A stretch of DNA of 35,552 nucleotides from a virus: the IMG/VR virus record IMGVR_UViG_3300018041_000024, positions 1 to 35,552 of that record. One strand, given 5' to 3'. Positions 21,990-35,490 of the stretch are shown in pieces. The first letter of the stretch is position 1; each line of letters starts with the position of its first letter. A program made the translations under genes and the position numbers. Under the pieces are notes generated by a model that did no database searches, was not told where the DNA came from, and saw nothing but the letters and a program-made list of their open reading frames with translations.

Positions 21990-22635
21990 GCAATGTGCCG
22001 TGGCGACGAGCCTCATCTCGTCTACGTTTATCTTCAACGTGAACTTCCTCGTCTGGTGCTAGCGTGACCGTGTCGTGAGGGATTGGCTCCATTGGGTTGC
22101 CGTCATCATCTAACGGCCAGAACGGAACAGAAGCATCGACTTTGCCATCCTCTGTGACTGGTCTTTCCCCGTAATACTTATCATTTGCACCATGCCAACG
22201 ATTGTGACATTCAGCGCAAATACGGTGTATGTTTCCCTCAACATTGCGCATCGTGTTTTTATCGGGGCCGTGATGTATAGCCTCTGCAGGATGCCCTGGA
22301 CAGCCAATGATTGGTTCAACACCTCCGCCAGCGTAACGAAGCCAGGCCCACTCGCAGACCATCCCTGCGTTAATAGGAAACTTCTTAGCCGCCTCTTTGC
22401 GTCCAGTCGAAATAGGGTCAGCATATTCATCCAGAGCCTTCGACCCAGTATAGCCTTCGAAGTACGCTTCGATTTCCTCCTCAATGGCATCTACAGGCCC
22501 CTTTCCGCCATCCATAGAGAATGCGCCATTGCAGCAGCAAAAGGCGTCTTCAGCAAGATTATCATCCCACATCTCCTGGCATTCGTCATGATAGCCAGCT
22601 TTGCAGGCGAGGCAAGCTTCTTTAGTCTTCTTCAT
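21973..22635 (-). CDS. HNH endonuclease-like zinc protein
   Basis: The product is 220 residues from the ATG at 22635, overlapping the primase stop by 14 bp; a TTG at 22644 is less likely. An N-terminal Cys cluster (CLACKAGYHDEC, then C-C-C) precedes the nuclease-like core with A-I-H-H-G-P-D-K-N and IHRICAECHNRWHG, which supply HNH-type His/Asn/His and zinc Cys residues. Such proteins nick or cut DNA and often serve in packaging or as homing enzymes. It is the last gene of the leftward replication operon and not beside TerL, so its role is open. Confidence 0.75.
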   Translation of the reverse strand: MKKTKEACLACKAGYHDECQEMWDDNLAEDAFCCCNGAFSMDGGKGPVDAIEEEIEAYFEGYTGSKALDEYADPISTGRKEAAKKFPINAGMVCEWAWLRYAGGGVEPIIGCPGHPAEAIHHGPDKNTMRNVEGNIHRICAECHNRWHGANDKYYGERPVTEDGKVDASVPFWPLDDDGNPMEPIPHDTVTLAPDEEVHVEDKRRRDEARRHGTLPKLDD

Positions 22636-25111
22636 CCCTACCAAATTCTACTTTGTACAGGTAGATTCCCTGATAGGCGCGGCGACCGTGTGCAGCACGT
22701 ATTGGGGATATCGGAAGCCTCATTCGCAGCTCTCGGATGAATGGGGTCATAGCGAGCGCCGTCTCTCCTTCTTCCTGGCACCACTGTCTGTAAGAGTGCA
22801 GCAAGTCGGAGGAGTTGACGGAAGCCAATGCGTTCTGAGCAACACAGTCCTCGATGTACTTGGACATGTGGTCTTCTTCGAAGCGGTATTCTGTGGTTGC
22901 AAGCTTGACCGAGTTAGGCTCAGTAAGTCCTTGTGCAAGAACTCTCTTGGCACCCTCAATCATCCAAGCTAGGACACCTGGCCCCTCTTCTTTTACAATC
23001 TCTTCTGCCAAGCCCTGTTTCTGCAAAGCATCAGGTACTTGGTAGCTAAAGTCAATCTTCCTGAGTCTTCTCCAGAAACCAGAGCCACCAGAACGAACCG
23101 AAGGTAGGTGGTTCAGGGCTAGGAACAGCGTGTGAGACGGCTTGAAGTCAAAGAAGTCCTTGTACATCTTGCGTGCAGAGATGATGTCTCCACCGGTAAG
23201 CATCTTGACCCTAGACTCGTTGAACCTTCCGTCAGGCCTCGTCTCAGAAGCAATTGCCATACGAACACCTCGTAGGTTTGCAATCTCTGTTGAGTGCTGG
23301 ACGCTGTTGCTATCAAGCAGGAAGTTTTCAGGCATTGTCCTGGCGTAAGAGCCCAGAATCTTGGCTGCAATGTCTAGCAGGGTGGACTTACCATTGGCAC
23401 CCACACCTACCAGAACTGGCAGCACGTGCCACCTAACTTCCCCAATAAGGGCCACGCCCAGAAGCTCCTGGATATAAGAGATTCTGTCGTCGTCAGTGAT
23501 GACAAGCTTCAGGAACTCCTCCCATTTGGGCGTGGCTGTTTTGGCTGGCGCTACTGCCGTCTGCATGGTGTTGAAGTCCTCGAAAGGGTCAGCTTCACGC
23601 AAAACGCCAGTGGCCAAATCTACAATTCCATTTGGCGTACAGAGTTCTGTGGGATTGGCGTCGAGAAGATGTGGCTCGACAATGATGTCAGGAACTGCCT
23701 CGGCTAGGCCGACAGCATTGCTGATGGATGCGCGGGATAGTGAGCGCTTAGTCCAGTCAAGCCCAGCTTTTGTGCCGTCTTTTGCACCAAAGGCTAGGGC
23801 TGATTCTGCTGCAAGCCTTTCGACGCCTCTTGAGCTGTCCGATTTGTAGCTGCTGTTCTCCCACTTGTGCCATCCAAGTTCAGGCACGTAAATAAACTTG
23901 CCCCTTGCCACGTCGGCTAAGCGCTCTGCGTTAGCGACATCGGTGTACTTGAACGAGTCCATTGGCAGCACGATTTCTGCTGGCTGAGTGGACAACGCCA
24001 AGCTACCGCTGGTACTTGCTGGCTCGGAGCTGCGCTCTTTTGGGAGGTCAGGTACTGAACTTAGGTGCAGCTTGTGCACGTGATTGCGTACCTCGCTGGC
24101 TACCTTAGCTTCGTCAAAGGTTGAGACGAGCTGCTTGGCCCAGCGGAACGCCGTCTGAACCTCTCCTGGATTCGGTTTACGGCGCTCGCCGGAATCTAAT
24201 AGGTCTAAGAACTTTGCTTCGACAAGACGAGACGCCTCAGCAAACCCATCCTGAGTGAAGCACCCGTGCCTGACAGAAGCGTAGAGTTTAATTGCGGTTG
24301 AAACAAGCCAGGGATGACGCGCCTTTGGTCTTGCCTTATCGATGGAATCCACAAGTGAAAGAGTCCACGTACAGTCCTCTGACGCAACGCGCCAATCTTC
24401 TGGTGGCGATACAACGACAAACTCACCAACAGTCGTGTTGTCAGATACAAATCCGTACGACTCGAGCGCCTCAACAACTTCTGATAGCTGAAGCGGGTAG
24501 GTGTGGTCATTGAACTCAACCTGTACGGGGATGGGGTTGGAAGCATCCTTGTGATTTATTGTACCTGGAGCACGCAAAACACGGGGTAGGTCTGACACAT
24601 TGTCGACCTTGCCACCAAATATCTCAGCGGTTCTCTGGACTAGCTGTCCAAACCTGCGGGAGATTCCAGCAATCATTGAGCGGTTTAGGTCGTCAATGTC
24701 GCCGTCTTCGATAGCCCAGTATGGCTGCAGGCCGTGCCCTGAGTGCACGATTGCAACTGGCTGGCAGTTCAGAATGTCAGATAGGGCGGCGATAACCTCG
24801 CGTGCCGTAGCTTCGTCTCCGATTCCCTCGTCTTTGAAGTCGAGGTCTGCCCATAGGGCGTTAAGTCTTGTGATGTCATTGACATCGCCTCGGGTGTTAT
24901 TCGAGGTAATTGTTGCTTCGTCAACAGAGTTGACCATGGTGTAGACGTTCATGCCGTTGGCAGTTAGCGTCTGTGCAAATATATCCGCATTCGATAGCGG
25001 AAGCATCTTAGAAGTCCACGAATTTTGGGGGCCAAAGTAGCAGACAGTTACCTTGTCTGACTCGGTTTTTCCTAGCCTCGTGAACAGTTCCAGAATGGGT
25101 CTGTCGTTCAC
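22622..25111 (-). CDS. Bifunctional primase/polymerase-helicase (AEP-like + D5/SF3)
   Basis: The product is 829 residues starting at a GTG with AAGGAG 5 nt upstream. The N-terminal ~210 residues look like an AEP-type primase (WADLDFK 87-93, HSGHGLQPYW 123-132, V-L-R-A-P-G-T-I-N-H-K near 178-188). The C-terminal ~300 residues are a D5/SF3 helicase with Walker A GVGANGKST (569-577), Walker B-like V-R-M-A-I-A-S-E (616-623) and sensor A-L-N-H-L-P (665-670). It opens the origin, unwinds and primes. No family-A, -B or -C polymerase was recognised in the window. Confidence 0.9.
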   Translation of the reverse strand: MNDRPILELFTRLGKTESDKVTVCYFGPQNSWTSKMLPLSNADIFAQTLTANGMNVYTMVNSVDEATITSNNTRGDVNDITRLNALWADLDFKDEGIGDEATAREVIAALSDILNCQPVAIVHSGHGLQPYWAIEDGDIDDLNRSMIAGISRRFGQLVQRTAEIFGGKVDNVSDLPRVLRAPGTINHKDASNPIPVQVEFNDHTYPLQLSEVVEALESYGFVSDNTTVGEFVVVSPPEDWRVASEDCTWTLSLVDSIDKARPKARHPWLVSTAIKLYASVRHGCFTQDGFAEASRLVEAKFLDLLDSGERRKPNPGEVQTAFRWAKQLVSTFDEAKVASEVRNHVHKLHLSSVPDLPKERSSEPASTSGSLALSTQPAEIVLPMDSFKYTDVANAERLADVARGKFIYVPELGWHKWENSSYKSDSSRGVERLAAESALAFGAKDGTKAGLDWTKRSLSRASISNAVGLAEAVPDIIVEPHLLDANPTELCTPNGIVDLATGVLREADPFEDFNTMQTAVAPAKTATPKWEEFLKLVITDDDRISYIQELLGVALIGEVRWHVLPVLVGVGANGKSTLLDIAAKILGSYARTMPENFLLDSNSVQHSTEIANLRGVRMAIASETRPDGRFNESRVKMLTGGDIISARKMYKDFFDFKPSHTLFLALNHLPSVRSGGSGFWRRLRKIDFSYQVPDALQKQGLAEEIVKEEGPGVLAWMIEGAKRVLAQGLTEPNSVKLATTEYRFEEDHMSKYIEDCVAQNALASVNSSDLLHSYRQWCQEEGETALAMTPFIRELRMRLPISPIRAAHGRRAYQGIYLYKVEFGRDEED

Positions 25112-29636: not shown

Positions 29637-29816
29637 TTATTTAGTTGGAATCGTGTGTGAAGTCCGGTAAAGCTCCACATCTTTCTTGTCGTATCGAACG
29701 GCAGCACTGTTGGCACCGCCGTATTTGAAGTATTTGGGGCCACGGTTACGGCTACGCCACTTTTGTAGCGTGTTGAGCGTGACGCCTAGGTAGGCACTGA
29801 CTTCGGCTGAGGTCAT
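29637..29816 (-). CDS. Excisionase/MerR-like HTH protein
   Basis: The product is 59 residues from the ATG at 29816, which overlaps the upstream TAA (TAATG); a TTG at 29873 would add 19 residues. The winged-helix pattern is clear: MTSAEVSAYLGVTLNTLQKW, then R-N-R-G-P-K-Y-F-K and V-R-Y-D-K-K-D-V-E-L-Y. Such proteins are excisionases or small regulators. No integrase was found in the window, so a regulator of early genes is as likely as an excisionase. Confidence 0.8.
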   Translation of the reverse strand: MTSAEVSAYLGVTLNTLQKWRSRNRGPKYFKYGGANSAAVRYDKKDVELYRTSHTIPTK

Positions 29817-30079
29817 TAGCTCATGCTGTACCTCGCCAGCTCCCACTTCGCTAGGGTGTTGTTCCATATCCAATGTCTCTCACCTCCGTCTGGTACTTCC
29901 TCAATCCTGCGGACAATTTCTTGAGCAATGATTATCTGGTCAGTAAAGATTTGTTTATCCCTGGCATCTTCGAACAGCTTGTCAGCTGTCCTGCCATCAT
30001 CGGCGTGAACAGAGTAAATGGTATTTACTGAGTACTCAAACCTTTTTGGGGAGGTAGTCGTAAGCTCTGACTCGTCCAT
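29816..30079 (-). CDS. Small protein, unknown
   Basis: The product is 87 residues with AAGGAG 7 nt before the ATG. Pattern: beta-strand (FEYSVNTIYSVHADDGR), a long helix (FTDQIIIAQEIVRRIEEVPD) and an aromatic end (HWIWNNTLAKWELARY). The stop overlaps the HTH gene start. No known family. Confidence 0.6.
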   Translation of the reverse strand: MDESELTTTSPKRFEYSVNTIYSVHADDGRTADKLFEDARDKQIFTDQIIIAQEIVRRIEEVPDGGERHWIWNNTLAKWELARYSMS

Positions 30080-31602: not shown

Positions 31603-32652
31603 TTAGAACACATCGCTATACGTGTGTTTAGTAGACACTAAGTCGCCCGACTTAGTGACATTGCCATAGTCCAACAGGCTTACGCCTGGCTCTTGGGCTA
31701 TGAAGTATAACTCGTTGACCCACCACTCTCTATCTTCTTCTGGATAGTAGAGAAAGTTGCTGGCCTGCTCGATGTCTTCCTTGACCTCTATCCAATACTT
31801 GTTGGGAGGACTAGAGACCTCGGGGGTAGCCAATGCTTTTGGGAACTCCCAATCCTCCTCATCGTCCCATACATCGAACTCGTCAAGGTAGACATTAGTT
31901 GAGTCTTTGGCACCGGAAGTCTGGTGACGGTAGTAGTTGTAGTTGTAGGCACCGTAACCTGAGTTCTGTGGCTCGGGTAGCATCTGTGTACTGTTGATAA
32001 TGCCGTGCTTGATTGTGTAGTAGTCAAGCTCGCTAGGCTCGTGCATCCATGTGGGCACGAGGTCAAGCTGAATAAGTACACGCCATAGCAACTGCTCGGT
32101 ACTAGCAAAGACGAACGAGCCGTCCTCGATGTGTGCAACACATAGCGGTGAGTGCTGATACCTAGCAAGGTGCAAGGTGTCAGGGTCACGGCGGTCAAGC
32201 CATGCAATAGCGGCATCGCCGTCAAGACGGTCAATGCTGGCAATACCGTGTTGCTCGATAGTAGCTGGAATAACACTGGTGTCAACAGCTGGCAACTGGC
32301 ATGAGATAGTCGTACGCACTTGGTCGTGGTTGTAGATGACACCGTTGTGTACGAGTGCAATGTTGCCGTCAGGTGAGATAACTGGATGATTGTTGCGGTT
32401 GTCGTGGACTGAACCGTGGGTAGCAAGACGGGTATGCAAGATAACCGTGCGTGCTTTGCGAGGCAGGAACTTGAGTGACAAGCTACTGCCGGGCTGTGGT
32501 GCTGAGTGGTAACCCATAGCACCGTCATGTGAATAGGCAAAGCCAGATGCCATGTAGCCTCTGTCTTCGATAGCCGTCAACATAGCGTTAGCTAGCTGGC
32601 GGGACTTGACTTTGGAATTGGGTGTCAAGCTGAACCCTGCAATACCACACAT
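31603..32652 (-). CDS. Class-II (Ntn) glutamine amidotransferase
   Basis: The product is 349 residues. Glutaminase-domain features: catalytic Cys2 (M-C-G-I-A-G-F), RGYMASG (31-37), HTRLATHG (73-80), NNHPV (87-91), H-N-G (102-104), Asp124 in V-D-T-S, and GDAAIAWLD (145-153). These are as in the GlmS, PurF and YafJ groups. It frees ammonia from glutamine; the initiator Met must be removed to expose Cys2. The C-terminal ~130 residues are acidic and aromatic with no known synthetase domain, so the acceptor enzyme is separate. The amidoligase gene directly upstream (66-bp gap) is the likely partner. AAAGGAG lies 8 nt before the ATG. Confidence 0.88.
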   Translation of the reverse strand: MCGIAGFSLTPNSKVKSRQLANAMLTAIEDRGYMASGFAYSHDGAMGYHSAPQPGSSLSLKFLPRKARTVILHTRLATHGSVHDNRNNHPVISPDGNIALVHNGVIYNHDQVRTTISCQLPAVDTSVIPATIEQHGIASIDRLDGDAAIAWLDRRDPDTLHLARYQHSPLCVAHIEDGSFVFASTEQLLWRVLIQLDLVPTWMHEPSELDYYTIKHGIINSTQMLPEPQNSGYGAYNYNYYRHQTSGAKDSTNVYLDEFDVWDDEEDWEFPKALATPEVSSPPNKYWIEVKEDIEQASNFLYYPEEDREWWVNELYFIAQEPGVSLLDYGNVTKSGDLVSTKHTYSDVF

Positions 32653-32672
32653 AGGCGGCTCCTTTCTATTAT

Positions 32673-32688
32673 TTCTATTCGGGGGGGG
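32673..32688 (-). promoter_or_regulatory. C-tract leader element B
   Basis: Eight C then GAATAGAA in the 66-bp gap between amidoligase and amidotransferase genes, 20 bp before the ATG. It differs from element A by one base. Just upstream, GTGCTA and TAGCAC arms could pair around the amidoligase stop region. Confidence 0.5.
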
Positions 32689-32718
32689 CTAGTGCTTGTG
32701 CTATTTACGCACCCACAC

Positions 32719-34422
32719 TTAGCACTCGGTTGCGCTCATGTCATAGTAAGTAAGCGACTTGTCCGCAAACAGCTGGTTGCTGGGCATCTCGGTACCGTAC
32801 TTGCGGAGTAGGGCAATGACATCATCGAGTTGACGGCAAGCAGTCCATTCGCGTTGGGCAATACCTAGTTTGGATACATTGACCATTTCACGAACGAACC
32901 ATGCCCACCTAACGAGATAGTCATAGTCATACCATGGCCCCATAGCACGGAACTCGATAGTGCCGTGGTGTCTGAGGGCATGGAGATTTACATCAGAGTA
33001 CCTGTCTTGTGGCGAGTCATTGACTAGGTCACGAGGACTAGGTACTGAGTCGGGGTGGAGGTTGCGATACTTGCGTACCTGTTGTAGCCACCACCTGAGA
33101 GTGTCAACAGTAGTTGGCCTGCAATAGTTGCGTACTTGCCTACGATAGATAGGCTCGAGCAACTTCTCGATGATTGAGTAGTTGAGTAGCAACCTACTGA
33201 CATCAGCAATACTGAGGTCACCGGCACCGACATGGACATGGATACCCGGCGAGGTATCTTCGTCCTCTCTGGCACCTAAGTCACCGCATAGCTTGCGCAA
33301 GCCACGACTGTTGTAAGACTCGAGGATAGGTGAGACATACTCACGGCCAGACATACTGTTCGTGCAATCGTCATACTCGCAATGTTCGCCGTTGTAGCAA
33401 TCATCGCAATCGCAATCGCAACCGCATGACAATGAGCCGTCATCTTTGTCTTCCCAACCTATTGGCCTAGATGTCTCGTTGGCACGGACAGTCTCAATCT
33501 CTATACCCCATGTGCGACTGGCATCGGTGCCAGTGTCAGCAAGTGGGATAGCTTGCCATGAGGCATAAGCCGCATCAGCAGGCTGAGGTGTAGTGGCCTT
33601 GATTGTCTCCCAGAACTTGGTAAACCGCTCGCCAGACTGTTGTAGTTTGAGCCTGTCAATGCGTGCTTGCCTAGTAGTCTGCTCTGACAGCAGTTGACTG
33701 CGTAGTGAGAAGATGTCACTGGTATCTAGCTTGATAGCAGAGCCACGAGCATACTGCTCGAGTATCGTATTGACACGAGCAATAGTCAGGTGCTGAGTCA
33801 GCCCCAATCGAATGTCCCATTGGTAATTCTCGTGGTTACTCGCAAAGCTAATGCCGTAAGCATCAGATAGCTTGTCACGAAGTGAATCCATGACGTTCTG
33901 CCGTCTGCTGAGCCAGACAGCGCGGTCGACAATGCCAACTGATGGATTGCCGGTATGTTCGTTGCGTAGCTTGGGCTCGGTAAAGACAAGAGGCAGATAG
34001 GCTTGGTCGTCCTCGTAGCCAGGAACAGGCGATAGTATCTCTGATAGCTCGCGAACAACTGATTCACGAGATAGCTTGTAATACCGACCGAGGTACTGAC
34101 TAGGGAACTTGATGTCAAGGCCCGAGTGCTTGTATCTGCCGTCCCAACTACTGTCAACGATAAGCCGTGGCAATGCTTTCATAAACGCTTGCGTCCATTG
34201 GTAGCTACGCAAGATGTACTTAGCAGTTGCCTCTGCTTGCTCGAATGACTCTATTGAGTCCATGAGCTTGATATTGTCAATGTCAATAGGCCGAGTGCCG
34301 TAACTGCGAACAGCATCGTCGGAATAACGATAGCGATTGCTAAGAACATTGTTGAGACGCTCGAGGCAATCTGCTGAGTTGCTGGCATCGTCATAGATAG
34401 TGACATCATCAACGGTGAACAT
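32719..34422 (-). CDS. Amidoligase (COOH-NH2 ligase family) with Cys-rich insert
   Basis: The product is 567 residues from the ATG at 34422 (M-F-T-V-D-D-V), with GGAGG 6 nt upstream. A longer frame from 34503 would start inside a repeated control element. Family motifs: W-G-I-E-I-E (305-310), D-D-G-S-L (327-331), G-R-E-Y-V-S-P (359-365), G-I-H-V-H-V-G (393-399) and H-G-T-I-E-F-R (486-492). These match the glutamine-synthetase-like COOH-NH2 ligases (Amidoligase_2 type), which join a carboxylate to an amine using ATP. Residues 333-353 hold seven Cys (333, 335, 337, 339, 342, 348, 353), a probable metal-binding insert. The N-terminal 300 residues match nothing recognised and may choose the substrate. 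Confidence 0.85.
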   Translation of the reverse strand: MFTVDDVTIYDDASNSADCLERLNNVLSNRYRYSDDAVRSYGTRPIDIDNIKLMDSIESFEQAEATAKYILRSYQWTQAFMKALPRLIVDSSWDGRYKHSGLDIKFPSQYLGRYYKLSRESVVRELSEILSPVPGYEDDQAYLPLVFTEPKLRNEHTGNPSVGIVDRAVWLSRRQNVMDSLRDKLSDAYGISFASNHENYQWDIRLGLTQHLTIARVNTILEQYARGSAIKLDTSDIFSLRSQLLSEQTTRQARIDRLKLQQSGERFTKFWETIKATTPQPADAAYASWQAIPLADTGTDASRTWGIEIETVRANETSRPIGWEDKDDGSLSCGCDCDCDDCYNGEHCEYDDCTNSMSGREYVSPILESYNSRGLRKLCGDLGAREDEDTSPGIHVHVGAGDLSIADVSRLLLNYSIIEKLLEPIYRRQVRNYCRPTTVDTLRWWLQQVRKYRNLHPDSVPSPRDLVNDSPQDRYSDVNLHALRHHGTIEFRAMGPWYDYDYLVRWAWFVREMVNVSKLGIAQREWTACRQLDDVIALLRKYGTEMPSNQLFADKSLTYYDMSATEC

Positions 34423-34485
34423 ACTCACCTCCTTTTTCTTCAGATAGTTATTGGACATCGCCGTCAAACAACAGCGACACATAGT

Positions 34486-34535
34486 AACGAAATTTGCCAG
34501 CACCTAGTTCTACTCGAGGGCAGGGCTGTGGTGCT
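34486..34535 (-). promoter_or_regulatory. Amidoligase leader: repeated element C
   Basis: AACGAAATTTGCCAGCACCT (34486-34505, plus one more A) is exactly repeated at 35206-35226. AGCACC (34499-34504) can pair with GGTGCT (34530-34535) around a loop holding the short C-element CCCTCGAGTAGAA (34508-34520, minus strand). It lies between the LexA box at 34549 and the amidoligase start. Confidence 0.6.
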
Positions 34536-34548
34536 AACCATTCCGTAA

Positions 34549-34564
34549 TCGAACAAATGTTCGA
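34549..34564. promoter_or_regulatory. LexA/SOS box 1
   Basis: TCGAACAAATGTTCGA: perfect 7-bp arms around AA, matching the Gram-positive/actinobacterial SOS box CGAAC-N4-GTTCG. It is identical, on the opposite strand, to box 3 at 35284-35299. Upstream of the amidoligase leader and at the edge of the origin-like region. A phage repressor using the same site is an alternative to host LexA. Confidence 0.75.
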
Positions 34565-34610
34565 AACCTGTGGATAACTTGGCTGTCATCACGACATAGC
34601 TGTACATAGA

Positions 34611-34893
34611 CGACATAGCTGACAAGCCTGTGGATAACTCTGTCATCAAAAAGGTACTTATCCACAGCCTGAAATGGGCACTTTGCCCAGTACTGTAGCC
34701 AAAGCTTGACAGCATGACAGCGTTGACAGCGAATTTATAAACTTTTTCTAAATGCAAGATGCTATGCATGAGTATCCAGAACTTTTTCTAAAATGCCGTT
34801 TTGCTGTCACGCTGTCACTTTATACCGAAACGGCTAGTAATGGCAAGTTATGTCGTCACGACATAGCTGACAGCCCTGTGGATAAACCTGTCA
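34611..34893 (+). repeat. Direct 35-bp repeat pair carrying DnaA boxes
   Basis: Copies at 34611-34645 and 34859-34893 match at 31 of 35 positions (CGACATAGCTGACA, then CCTGTGGATAA and CTGTCA). Each contains one DnaA box and a terminal CTGTCA. They bracket the AT-rich core. A third partial copy of CGACATAGCTG starts near 34592. Confidence 0.85.
34740..34792 (+). repeat. Two AT-rich 13-mers exactly 40 bp apart
   Basis: AACTTTTTCTAAA at 34740-34752 and 34780-34792 are identical. They lie in the most AT-rich part of the origin-like region, as duplex-unwinding 13-mers do next to DnaA boxes. The 40-bp period is near four helical turns, so both face the same side of the DNA. Confidence 0.75.
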
Positions 34894-34911
34894 CCCTCGC
34901 TGTCACCTGTT

Positions 34912-34925
34912 CGAACACTTGTTCG
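34912..34925. promoter_or_regulatory. LexA/SOS box 2
   Basis: CGAACACTTGTTCG fits CGAAC-N4-GTTCG. It lies immediately after the zinc-ribbon gene stop and next to the outermost CTGTCA hexamer of the origin-like region. Confidence 0.65.
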
Positions 34926-34926
34926 C

Positions 34927-35082
34927 CTACGATAAGACTCTTACGCCACAAGTTGGGCAATAGGCATAGTGGCTTACCCACGACAATTCATAGGACATAC
35001 CGGCCTCTAAAGCACAGTTGTCGCAGTAATACTCCCCGAAATGGGGGTGCTGCTCGTCCTGATAATAAAACCTGATTTGCAT
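34927..35082 (-). CDS. 51-residue zinc-ribbon protein (overlooked small gene)
   Basis: The ATG at 35082 has GGAG 8 nt upstream and overlaps the stop of the membrane-peptide gene (TAATG). The product has two Cys pairs, Y-C-D-N-C (Cys20, Cys23) and Y-C-P-T-C (Cys42, Cys45), 18 residues apart, the layout of a zinc ribbon. The N-terminus is aromatic (MQIRFYYQDEQHPHFGEYY). Phage zinc ribbons of this size are usually regulators or partners of host RNA polymerase or replication proteins. The exact role is unknown. Confidence 0.7.
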   Translation of the reverse strand: MQIRFYYQDEQHPHFGEYYCDNCALEAGMSYELSWVSHYAYCPTCGVRVLS

Positions 35083-35153
35083 TAGGTCGCTCCTAACATC
35101 ACAAACACTAGGCAGATAACGAAAATTGCCCAGACAGTAATCAATGGGTTCAT
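35082..35153 (-). CDS. 23-residue single-helix membrane peptide (overlooked small gene)
   Basis: The ATG at 35153 has GGGAGAG about 4 nt upstream. The product is essentially one transmembrane helix (M-N-P-L-I-T-V-W-A-I-F-V-I-C-L-V-F-V-M-L-G-A-T). It is coupled by TAATG to the zinc-ribbon gene. SOS-controlled membrane peptides are known in bacteria (for example TisB, SidA), which makes the nearby LexA box notable. A lysis-, toxin- or division-related role is possible but unproven. Confidence 0.6.
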   Translation of the reverse strand: MNPLITVWAIFVICLVFVMLGAT

Positions 35154-35205
35154 AATCTCTCCCTGCTAGTAATGGGTTATTTCGTCCCCGTCAGGGACAA
35201 TCAAC

Positions 35206-35245
35206 AACGAAATTTGCCAGCACCTAATTCCATTCGCGGTGCTGG
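35206..35245 (-). promoter_or_regulatory. Membrane-peptide leader: repeated element D
   Basis: Exact 21-bp copy (35206-35226) of the element before the amidoligase. Here CCAGCACC (35217-35224) and GGTGCTGG (35238-35245) form a perfect 8-bp stem around a 13-nt loop with a diverged C-element (GCGAATGGAA, minus strand). A partial third copy, AACGAAATTTG, is at 35370-35380. The rest of the 344-bp gap 35154-35497 holds box 3 and a terminator but no supported gene. Confidence 0.6.
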
Positions 35246-35283
35246 TGGTGGTGCTATGCCCCACGCCCCTGCCCAAGAACCAT

Positions 35284-35299
35284 TCGAACATTTGTTCGA
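35284..35299. promoter_or_regulatory. LexA/SOS box 3
   Basis: TCGAACATTTGTTCGA, a perfect match to CGAAC-N4-GTTCG, lies 58 bp upstream of repeated element D, much as box 1 lies 43 bp upstream of element C. Between box and element both leaders share GAATGGTT and TAGCACCAC. Confidence 0.75.
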
Positions 35300-35439
35300 T
35301 AGCTCAATGGCACGGGCTATGGGCCTTGCTATTGCCTATGCACAAGGGCATCGGCATTGACACAGTAAGAACGAAATTTGGATGGGCCGGGGCTAGGGAG
35401 TAATAGTTTTTTCCACTCGTTTCCTTCTATGCGGCGGAC

Positions 35440-35490
35440 AAAAAAAGGGCCACGGCCCAGCCCCGTGGTGGGAACTGAGCCGTGGCCCTT
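35440..35490 (-). terminator. Strong intrinsic terminator
   Basis: A perfect 12-bp GC-rich stem, AAGGGCCACGGC (35445-35456) with GCCGTGGCCCTT (35479-35490), is followed in the leftward direction by seven U (A-run 35440-35446). It ends the transcript of the gene entering from the right edge and isolates the control region. Confidence 0.9.

What the first reader, a model, noticed from the sequence alone, without database searches (positions are those of the whole stretch)
34565..34911. Host-type origin in a phage: four perfect DnaA boxes, paired 13-mers and ten hexamers
Seen directly: four TTATCCACA boxes, two AACTTTTTCTAAA 13-mers exactly 40 bp apart, ten CTGTCA hexamers and 35-bp direct repeats bracketing an AT-rich core, all in one gene-free stretch. 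Known: DnaA boxes plus AT-rich 13-mers and iteron-like repeats define theta origins of chromosomes and plasmids. Inferred: the phage recruits host DnaA and may replicate like a plasmid at some stage. Clustered DnaA boxes of this quality are not typical of phages with their own replication initiator.
Basis: partly seen in the sequence, partly recalled or inferred. Interest (0 to 1): 0.82.

Follow-up and report, generated by a model that had tools for sequence, protein, structure and literature searches.

The report
Phage replication origin with DnaA boxes
A group of uncultured, probably actinobacterial viruses carries a compact replication origin built like a plasmid's, with landing sites for the bacterium's own start-of-replication protein DnaA kept in every relative that reaches the spot; it is most likely where these viruses start copying their DNA, but nobody has tested it.

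Summary
Chance is negligible.

The new evidence is conservation. All four near-full-length relatives (prim-pol 74-85% identical) carry one such cluster: a DnaA-box pair at exactly 29 bp, TGACAGC repeats facing inward across a weak AT-rich core, a TACCGA block, a TATGTCGTCACGACATA palindrome and a distal TGTGGA box; a truncated sixth member keeps the right part. The core is among the least stable 0.05-0.3% of windows in each genome. The repeat skeleton without DnaA boxes retrieves only these phages from 2.9 million viral contigs.

Best reading: a composite theta-type origin where host DnaA and a phage prim-pol/D5 helicase with a predicted winged-helix tail open the duplex. The plasmid-prophage idea is unsupported: no integrase, resolvase or ParA. 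Three LexA/SOS boxes bracket the origin in this phage only. DnaA-box clusters also occur in at least 14 other terminase-bearing viral contigs, so they are uncommon, not unique.

The parts
34549..34926 (.). whole element: predicted replication origin with the LexA boxes that flank it on both sides
34569..34577 (-). DnaA box 1, TTATCCACA (present at the equivalent outer position in G002 and G008, absent in G004 and G007)
34629..34637 (-). DnaA box 2, left member of the inverted pair with 29-bp start-to-start spacing, same spacing in all 5 records that include it
34658..34666 (+). DnaA box 3, right member of the inverted pair
34877..34885 (-). DnaA box 4 on the far side of the AT-rich core (exact in window, G004, G007 and L072; degenerate TGTGGAAA form in G002 and G008)
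34707..34730 (+). left iteron-like array: TGACAGC at 34707, 34715 and 34724; the last two copies conserved as TGACAGC(A/G)-N-TGACAGCG in 6 of 6
34734..34823 (.). predicted unwinding element: least stable 90-bp stretch of the region
34740..34752 (+). 13-mer AACTTTTTCTAAA, copy 1 (AACTTTT core recurs in pairs 49-50 bp apart in G002, G007 and G008)
34780..34792 (+). 13-mer AACTTTTTCTAAA, copy 2 (AACTTTT here is invariant in all 6)
34803..34817 (-). right iteron-like array, TGACAGC on the minus strand at 34803 and 34811, pointing back at the core (GCTGTCAC invariant in 6 of 6)
34823..34828 (+). TACCGA block, invariant in 6 of 6
34849..34865 (.). palindrome TATGTCGTCACGACATA, one copy per genome, 0-1 mismatch in all 6; further half sites ACGACATA at 34591 and 34610
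34610..34645 (+). direct repeat copy 1 (half palindrome, TGACA, DnaA box)
34858..34893 (+). direct repeat copy 2, 89% identical
34549..34564 (.). LexA/SOS box TCGAACAAATGTTCGA, perfect match, 5 bp from DnaA box 1
34911..34926 (.). LexA/SOS box TCGAACACTTGTTCGC, one mismatch
35284..35299 (.). LexA/SOS box TCGAACATTTGTTCGA, perfect match, upstream of a leftward two-gene unit that reads towards the origin
22622..25111 (-). prim-pol with D5/SF3 helicase and a predicted C-terminal winged helix: candidate phage partner at the origin
32719..34423 (-). amidoligase-like gene, first gene to the left of the origin
35445..35490 (-). strong intrinsic terminator for the leftward gene that enters at the right end of the window

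Best explanation
This is the replication origin of a tailed phage of a probably actinobacterial host. Proposed working: (1) host DnaA binds the inverted box pair on the left and the single box on the right, and so brackets and bends the AT-rich core; (2) a phage protein binds the inward-facing TGACAGC repeats, most likely the prim-pol/D5 helicase through its C-terminal winged helix; (3) together they open the AACTTTT/13-mer core; (4) the D5 helicase domain is loaded there, the prim-pol domain lays primers and the host polymerase extends them. The TATGTCGTCACGACATA palindrome is a site for an unidentified dimeric regulator, either an initiator or a copy-control repressor. In this phage alone, host LexA sits on both shoulders and on the leftward promoter region to the right, so DNA damage would release transcription around and perhaps across the origin. 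Shown: the sequence elements, their conservation, the low stability of the core, the gene content. Inferred: every binding event, the opening, the helicase loading and the SOS link.
For: One cluster per genome with identical 29-bp pair spacing in 5 of 5 records that span it; zero exact boxes elsewhere in those genomes. Invariant blocks in 6 members; the repeat skeleton without DnaA boxes finds only the family in viral contigs. The core is in the least stable 0.05-0.3% of each genome. Same parts as iteron plasmid origins described for RK2 and P1: DnaA boxes, repeats for a second initiator, and an unwinding element with 13-mers (PMC4980987). Prim-pol: D5_N and DUF5906 domains, match to solved D5-type primase-helicases, C-terminal model with winged-helix topology whose best fold matches are RFX winged helices, with ASFV PrimPol also listed. 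No DnaA, DnaB or family A, B or C polymerase of its own. LexA boxes: 3 seen against 0.017 expected, matching the Streptomyces motif tCGAAC-N4-GNNCGa (PMC9380542).
Against: No binding or replication data exist. GC skew does not single out the site: in G004 and G007 it rises rightward from the site, in G002, G008 and the window it shows no clear switch. DnaA sites can sit at a phage origin without being needed: mutating the two DnaA sites near P1 oriL did not reduce RepL-driven amplification (PMC9948254). The prim-pol gene lies about 9.5 kb from the site, not next to it. The C-terminal model has moderate confidence (mean pLDDT 67). All relatives come from one family, so conservation alone cannot tell an origin from another essential regulatory site.
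Confidence: 0.7

Rival explanations
1. Phage-only origin. The prim-pol (P4-alpha-like) or another phage protein initiates by itself on the TGACAGC repeats and the palindrome; the DnaA boxes only tune transcription or timing, as suggested for other phage origins with dispensable DnaA sites.
For: Own primase-helicase with predicted winged helix; the TGACAGC arrays and palindrome are conserved at least as strictly as the DnaA boxes, of which box 1 and box 4 vary; P1 oriL precedent (PMC9948254).
Against: The inverted DnaA pair is exact and at a fixed 29-bp spacing in every genome that spans it, while the sequence between the boxes varies, which argues for strong selection on DnaA binding.
Confidence: 0.2
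2. Transcriptional control region, not an origin. DnaA, LexA and a phage regulator repress or activate the leftward early operon, and the AT-rich core is promoter DNA.
For: It lies directly upstream of a leftward operon, with LexA boxes in the window; host DnaA and LexA co-regulate promoters elsewhere, e.g. uvrB of E. coli (title and abstract of PMC6015884).
Against: No significant promoter excess in the region (2 found, 1.7 expected); paired 13-mers in a symmetric frame of inward repeats with boxes on both sides are origin architecture; no other candidate origin was noticed, but none was searched for systematically.
Confidence: 0.08
3. DnaA-titration decoy (datA-like): the phage mops up host DnaA to stop host chromosome initiation.
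For: Clustered high-affinity boxes and nothing else needed.
Against: Does not explain the 13-mers, inward TGACAGC arrays, palindrome or weak core, all co-conserved.
Confidence: 0.02

Closest known systems
RK2 oriV and P1 oriR (iteron plasmid origins with DnaA boxes; PMC4980987)
   Same: DnaA boxes plus repeats for a second initiator plus an AT-rich unwinding element with 13-mers; P1 likewise has DnaA-box arrays on both sides.
   Different: Here the repeats are 7-8 bp and face each other across the core instead of long same-direction iterons; no plasmid Rep protein was seen among the proteins scanned; there is an extra palindrome; no ParA.
Satellite phage P4 ori/crr with alpha protein (own knowledge)
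   Same: A primase-D5-type helicase with a C-terminal winged helix that recognises short repeats.
   Different: P4 alpha works without DnaA, to my knowledge; the repeat sequence and layout differ; binding here is not shown.
Origins of extrachromosomal mycobacterial prophages (PMC7157519)
   Same: Actinobacterial phages with their own replicon sequence.
   Different: Those use RepA or RNA and sit beside parABS; the paper does not mention DnaA and found no repeated motifs; here integrase and ParA are absent and DnaA boxes are the hallmark.
GIL01, LexA-controlled temperate phage (PMC4551915)
   Same: Host LexA boxes placed in a phage control region.
   Different: Boxes bracket an origin here, in one genome only; no gp7 equivalent was looked for; lysogeny is not shown.
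Actinobacteriophages with phrog_2478 prim-pol (Mycobacterium MacnCheese, Gordonia GMA4)
   Same: Related prim-pol, 37% identity; WhiB genes in MacnCheese.
   Different: MacnCheese and GMA4 carry an integrase gene; MacnCheese has no exact box in the 36 kb read, GMA4 has two near-consensus boxes in the gap after its prim-pol, with no comparable cluster.

Membership tests
iteron plasmid origin (RK2/P1/pSC101 type) | DnaA boxes close to the unwinding element | tested here: met
iteron plasmid origin (RK2/P1/pSC101 type) | AT-rich unwinding element with repeated 13-mers | tested here: met
   the exact 13-mer pair is in the window only, the shorter AACTTTT pair in four of five spanning genomes
iteron plasmid origin (RK2/P1/pSC101 type) | array of long same-direction iterons | tested here: not met
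   only 7-8-bp repeats, facing inward from both sides
iteron plasmid origin (RK2/P1/pSC101 type) | cognate Rep initiator gene | tested here: inconclusive
   none among the proteins scanned; not every gene of the relatives was scanned
bacterial chromosome oriC | dnaA gene in or beside the replicon | tested here: not met
   no Bac_DnaA match in six records
phage-plasmid / extrachromosomal prophage | partition system (ParA) | tested here: not met
   0 of 11 records for PF13614; several records are fragments
phage-plasmid / extrachromosomal prophage | autonomous maintenance of the fragment | not testable with these tools
   needs transformation
integrating temperate phage | integrase | tested here: not met
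   no tyrosine integrase or resolvase-type recombinase
P4-alpha-like primase-helicase initiator | D5/SF3 helicase domain | tested here: met
P4-alpha-like primase-helicase initiator | C-terminal winged-helix DNA-binding domain | tested here: inconclusive
   predicted topology and RFX/PrimPol matches, moderate confidence; weak Pox_D5 hit
P4-alpha-like primase-helicase initiator | binds short repeats at the origin | not testable with these tools
   no binding data
LexA-regulated phage (GIL01 kind) | SOS boxes at the control region | tested here: met
   window only; absent in relatives
LexA-regulated phage (GIL01 kind) | SOS-inducible lysogeny | not testable with these tools
   no host, no culture

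The most novel reading that the evidence does not exclude
An integrase-free phage lineage couples two host switches at one site: DnaA licenses its origin, tying phage replication to the host's replication state, and in this member LexA caps both sides of the origin so that DNA damage releases it. A prim-pol/D5 helicase would then be an initiator that works together with DnaA, a pairing I found no report of in the library searched.
Probability: 0.25. Interest if true: 0.7.

Novelty: new variant of a known kind. Interest (0 to 1): 0.5.

Why it matters
If right, it gives a compact, testable example of a tailed phage that keeps a full DnaA-dependent type of origin although it brings its own primase-helicase, and a sequence signature by which this family can be found. 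It also suggests that DnaA-box clusters recur in several groups of tailed phages and deserve a systematic survey, which would show how often phages tie their replication to the host's own initiation control.

Tried and rejected
Host by prophage search: no relative of the prim-pol in 84,980 genomes with the two peptide patterns used. Origin pattern in genomes: 31 hits, of which the five Corynebacterium hits looked like a promising shared site with the same spacing but lie at conserved genes and lack DnaA boxes, so a coincidence. GC skew: confounded by gene direction and inconsistent between relatives. The ~390-aa protein beside the origin as initiator: no family match, low-confidence model, no fold match; not excluded. 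Left-gene query for relatives: none. DNA-level search in phage records: none. Sigma-70 promoter scan: no excess. Datum dropped: a reading frame I first used for the truncated right-end gene was wrong, corrected.

Full report
What was checked. The window is an IMG/VR virus record of 35,552 bases without end repeats, probably a partial genome: relatives are 43-45 kb, and one of them (G007) has 127-bp direct terminal repeats. Exact DnaA boxes occur only there, and the CTGTCA excess is confined to that stretch.

The phage. Minus-strand genes include portal, major head and terminase proteins, a prim-pol of 829 aa, a Cas4/PD-(D/E)XK-like exonuclease, a SNF2-like helicase, a WhiB-like regulator, and an amidoligase with a glutamine amidotransferase. 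WhiB, the prim-pol's nearest named relatives in Mycobacterium and Gordonia phages and the SOS-box type suggest an actinobacterial host; the host itself was not found. No family A, B or C DNA polymerase, DnaB, DnaA, tyrosine integrase, resolvase or ParA was detected. Absence statements rest on six records for most families, of which the window and L072 are partial.

Conservation. A prim-pol query gave nine relatives at 72-92% identity. The four whose contigs reach the site have one cluster each; the other five have no box, and the prim-pol-oriented loci show less than 8 kb of sequence on the origin side, so they probably end before it. A sixth origin, L072, came from a pattern search. Alignment shows invariant blocks: the repeat pair TGACAGC(A/G)-N-TGACAGCG, AACTTTT-N3-AAAA, GCTGTCAC, TACCGA, TATGTCGTCACGACAT, TGTGGA, and TGTCA...CGCTGTCAC. 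The inverted DnaA pair has the same 29-bp spacing in five of five. As a search that does not assume DnaA boxes, the repeat skeleton alone was run through 2.9 million viral contigs: it returned the five known relatives and nothing else. The core is in the least stable 0.05-0.3% of each genome, although in G004 and G007 the weakest 90 bp lie over or beside the DnaA pair and not over the 13-mers.

Mechanism. The parts are those of DnaA-assisted iteron plasmid origins as reviewed in PMC4980987. What is unusual is the candidate partner. The prim-pol has D5_N/DUF5906 helicase domains, matches solved D5-type primase-helicases by sequence, and its C-terminal 140 residues are predicted as a winged helix at moderate confidence, with RFX domains as best matches and ASFV PrimPol and Cdc6/Orc1 also listed. 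I infer that it binds the inward TGACAGC arrays. The palindrome, one copy per genome, fits a dimeric regulator; the HTH_17 protein at 29637-29873 and the XRE-type protein of the relatives are candidates. None of this binding is shown.

SOS boxes. Three matches to TCGAAC-N4-GTTCGA with at most one mismatch lie within 750 bp, against 0.017 expected in the window; the Streptomyces LexA motif is tCGAAC-N4-GNNCGa (PMC9380542). Two of them flank the origin directly. The regions below boxes 34549 and 35284 share a 51-bp block at 80% identity, so this looks like a duplicated LexA-controlled leader. Relatives lack these boxes, so SOS control is not part of the conserved origin.

How unusual is it. Of these, 27 have four or more boxes in 400 bp; 14 of the 27 records carry a terminase, none encodes DnaA, and in 13 of the 14 the boxes lie outside ORFs of 100 aa or more. 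Such clusters are therefore uncommon but recurrent among viral contigs. I found no paper in the library describing one in this phage group; the library holds only part of the literature.

Verdict. A real, conserved, almost certainly functional site, most likely the replication origin; use of host DnaA is likely but untested; a plasmid-like stage is unsupported.

Noticed in passing
34549-34564, 34911-34926, 35284-35299: Three LexA/SOS boxes around the origin, absent from all relatives examined.
   Followed up: yes
34486-34535 and 35206-35255: A 51-bp block at 80% identity repeated downstream of two of the LexA boxes (both read leftward): looks like a duplicated control region or leader.
   Followed up: partly
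window right end from 35500; L059:18115-19299, L068:1016-2203, L027:3748-4908, L028:1659-2846: Conserved protein of about 390 aa beside the origin in four relatives with no family or fold match; the window seems to hold only its last 17 residues.
   Followed up: partly
34933-35160 (minus strand): Two tiny genes between the origin and the right-hand LexA box: a one-helix membrane peptide (MNPLITVWAIF...) and a small protein with paired CxxC motifs.
   Followed up: no
31603-34423: Amidoligase-like and class II glutamine amidotransferase genes side by side at the start of the leftward operon, conserved in relatives.
   Followed up: no
L137, L152, L160, L170 and other loci: Terminase-bearing viral contigs with 4-7 exact DnaA boxes in intergenic clusters; several share a similar terminase of about 420 aa, so at least one further phage group may carry DnaA-type origins.
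   Followed up: partly
35413-35435: CCACTCGTTTCCTTCTATGCG shared with G004 and G007 to the right of the origin; function unknown.
   Followed up: no
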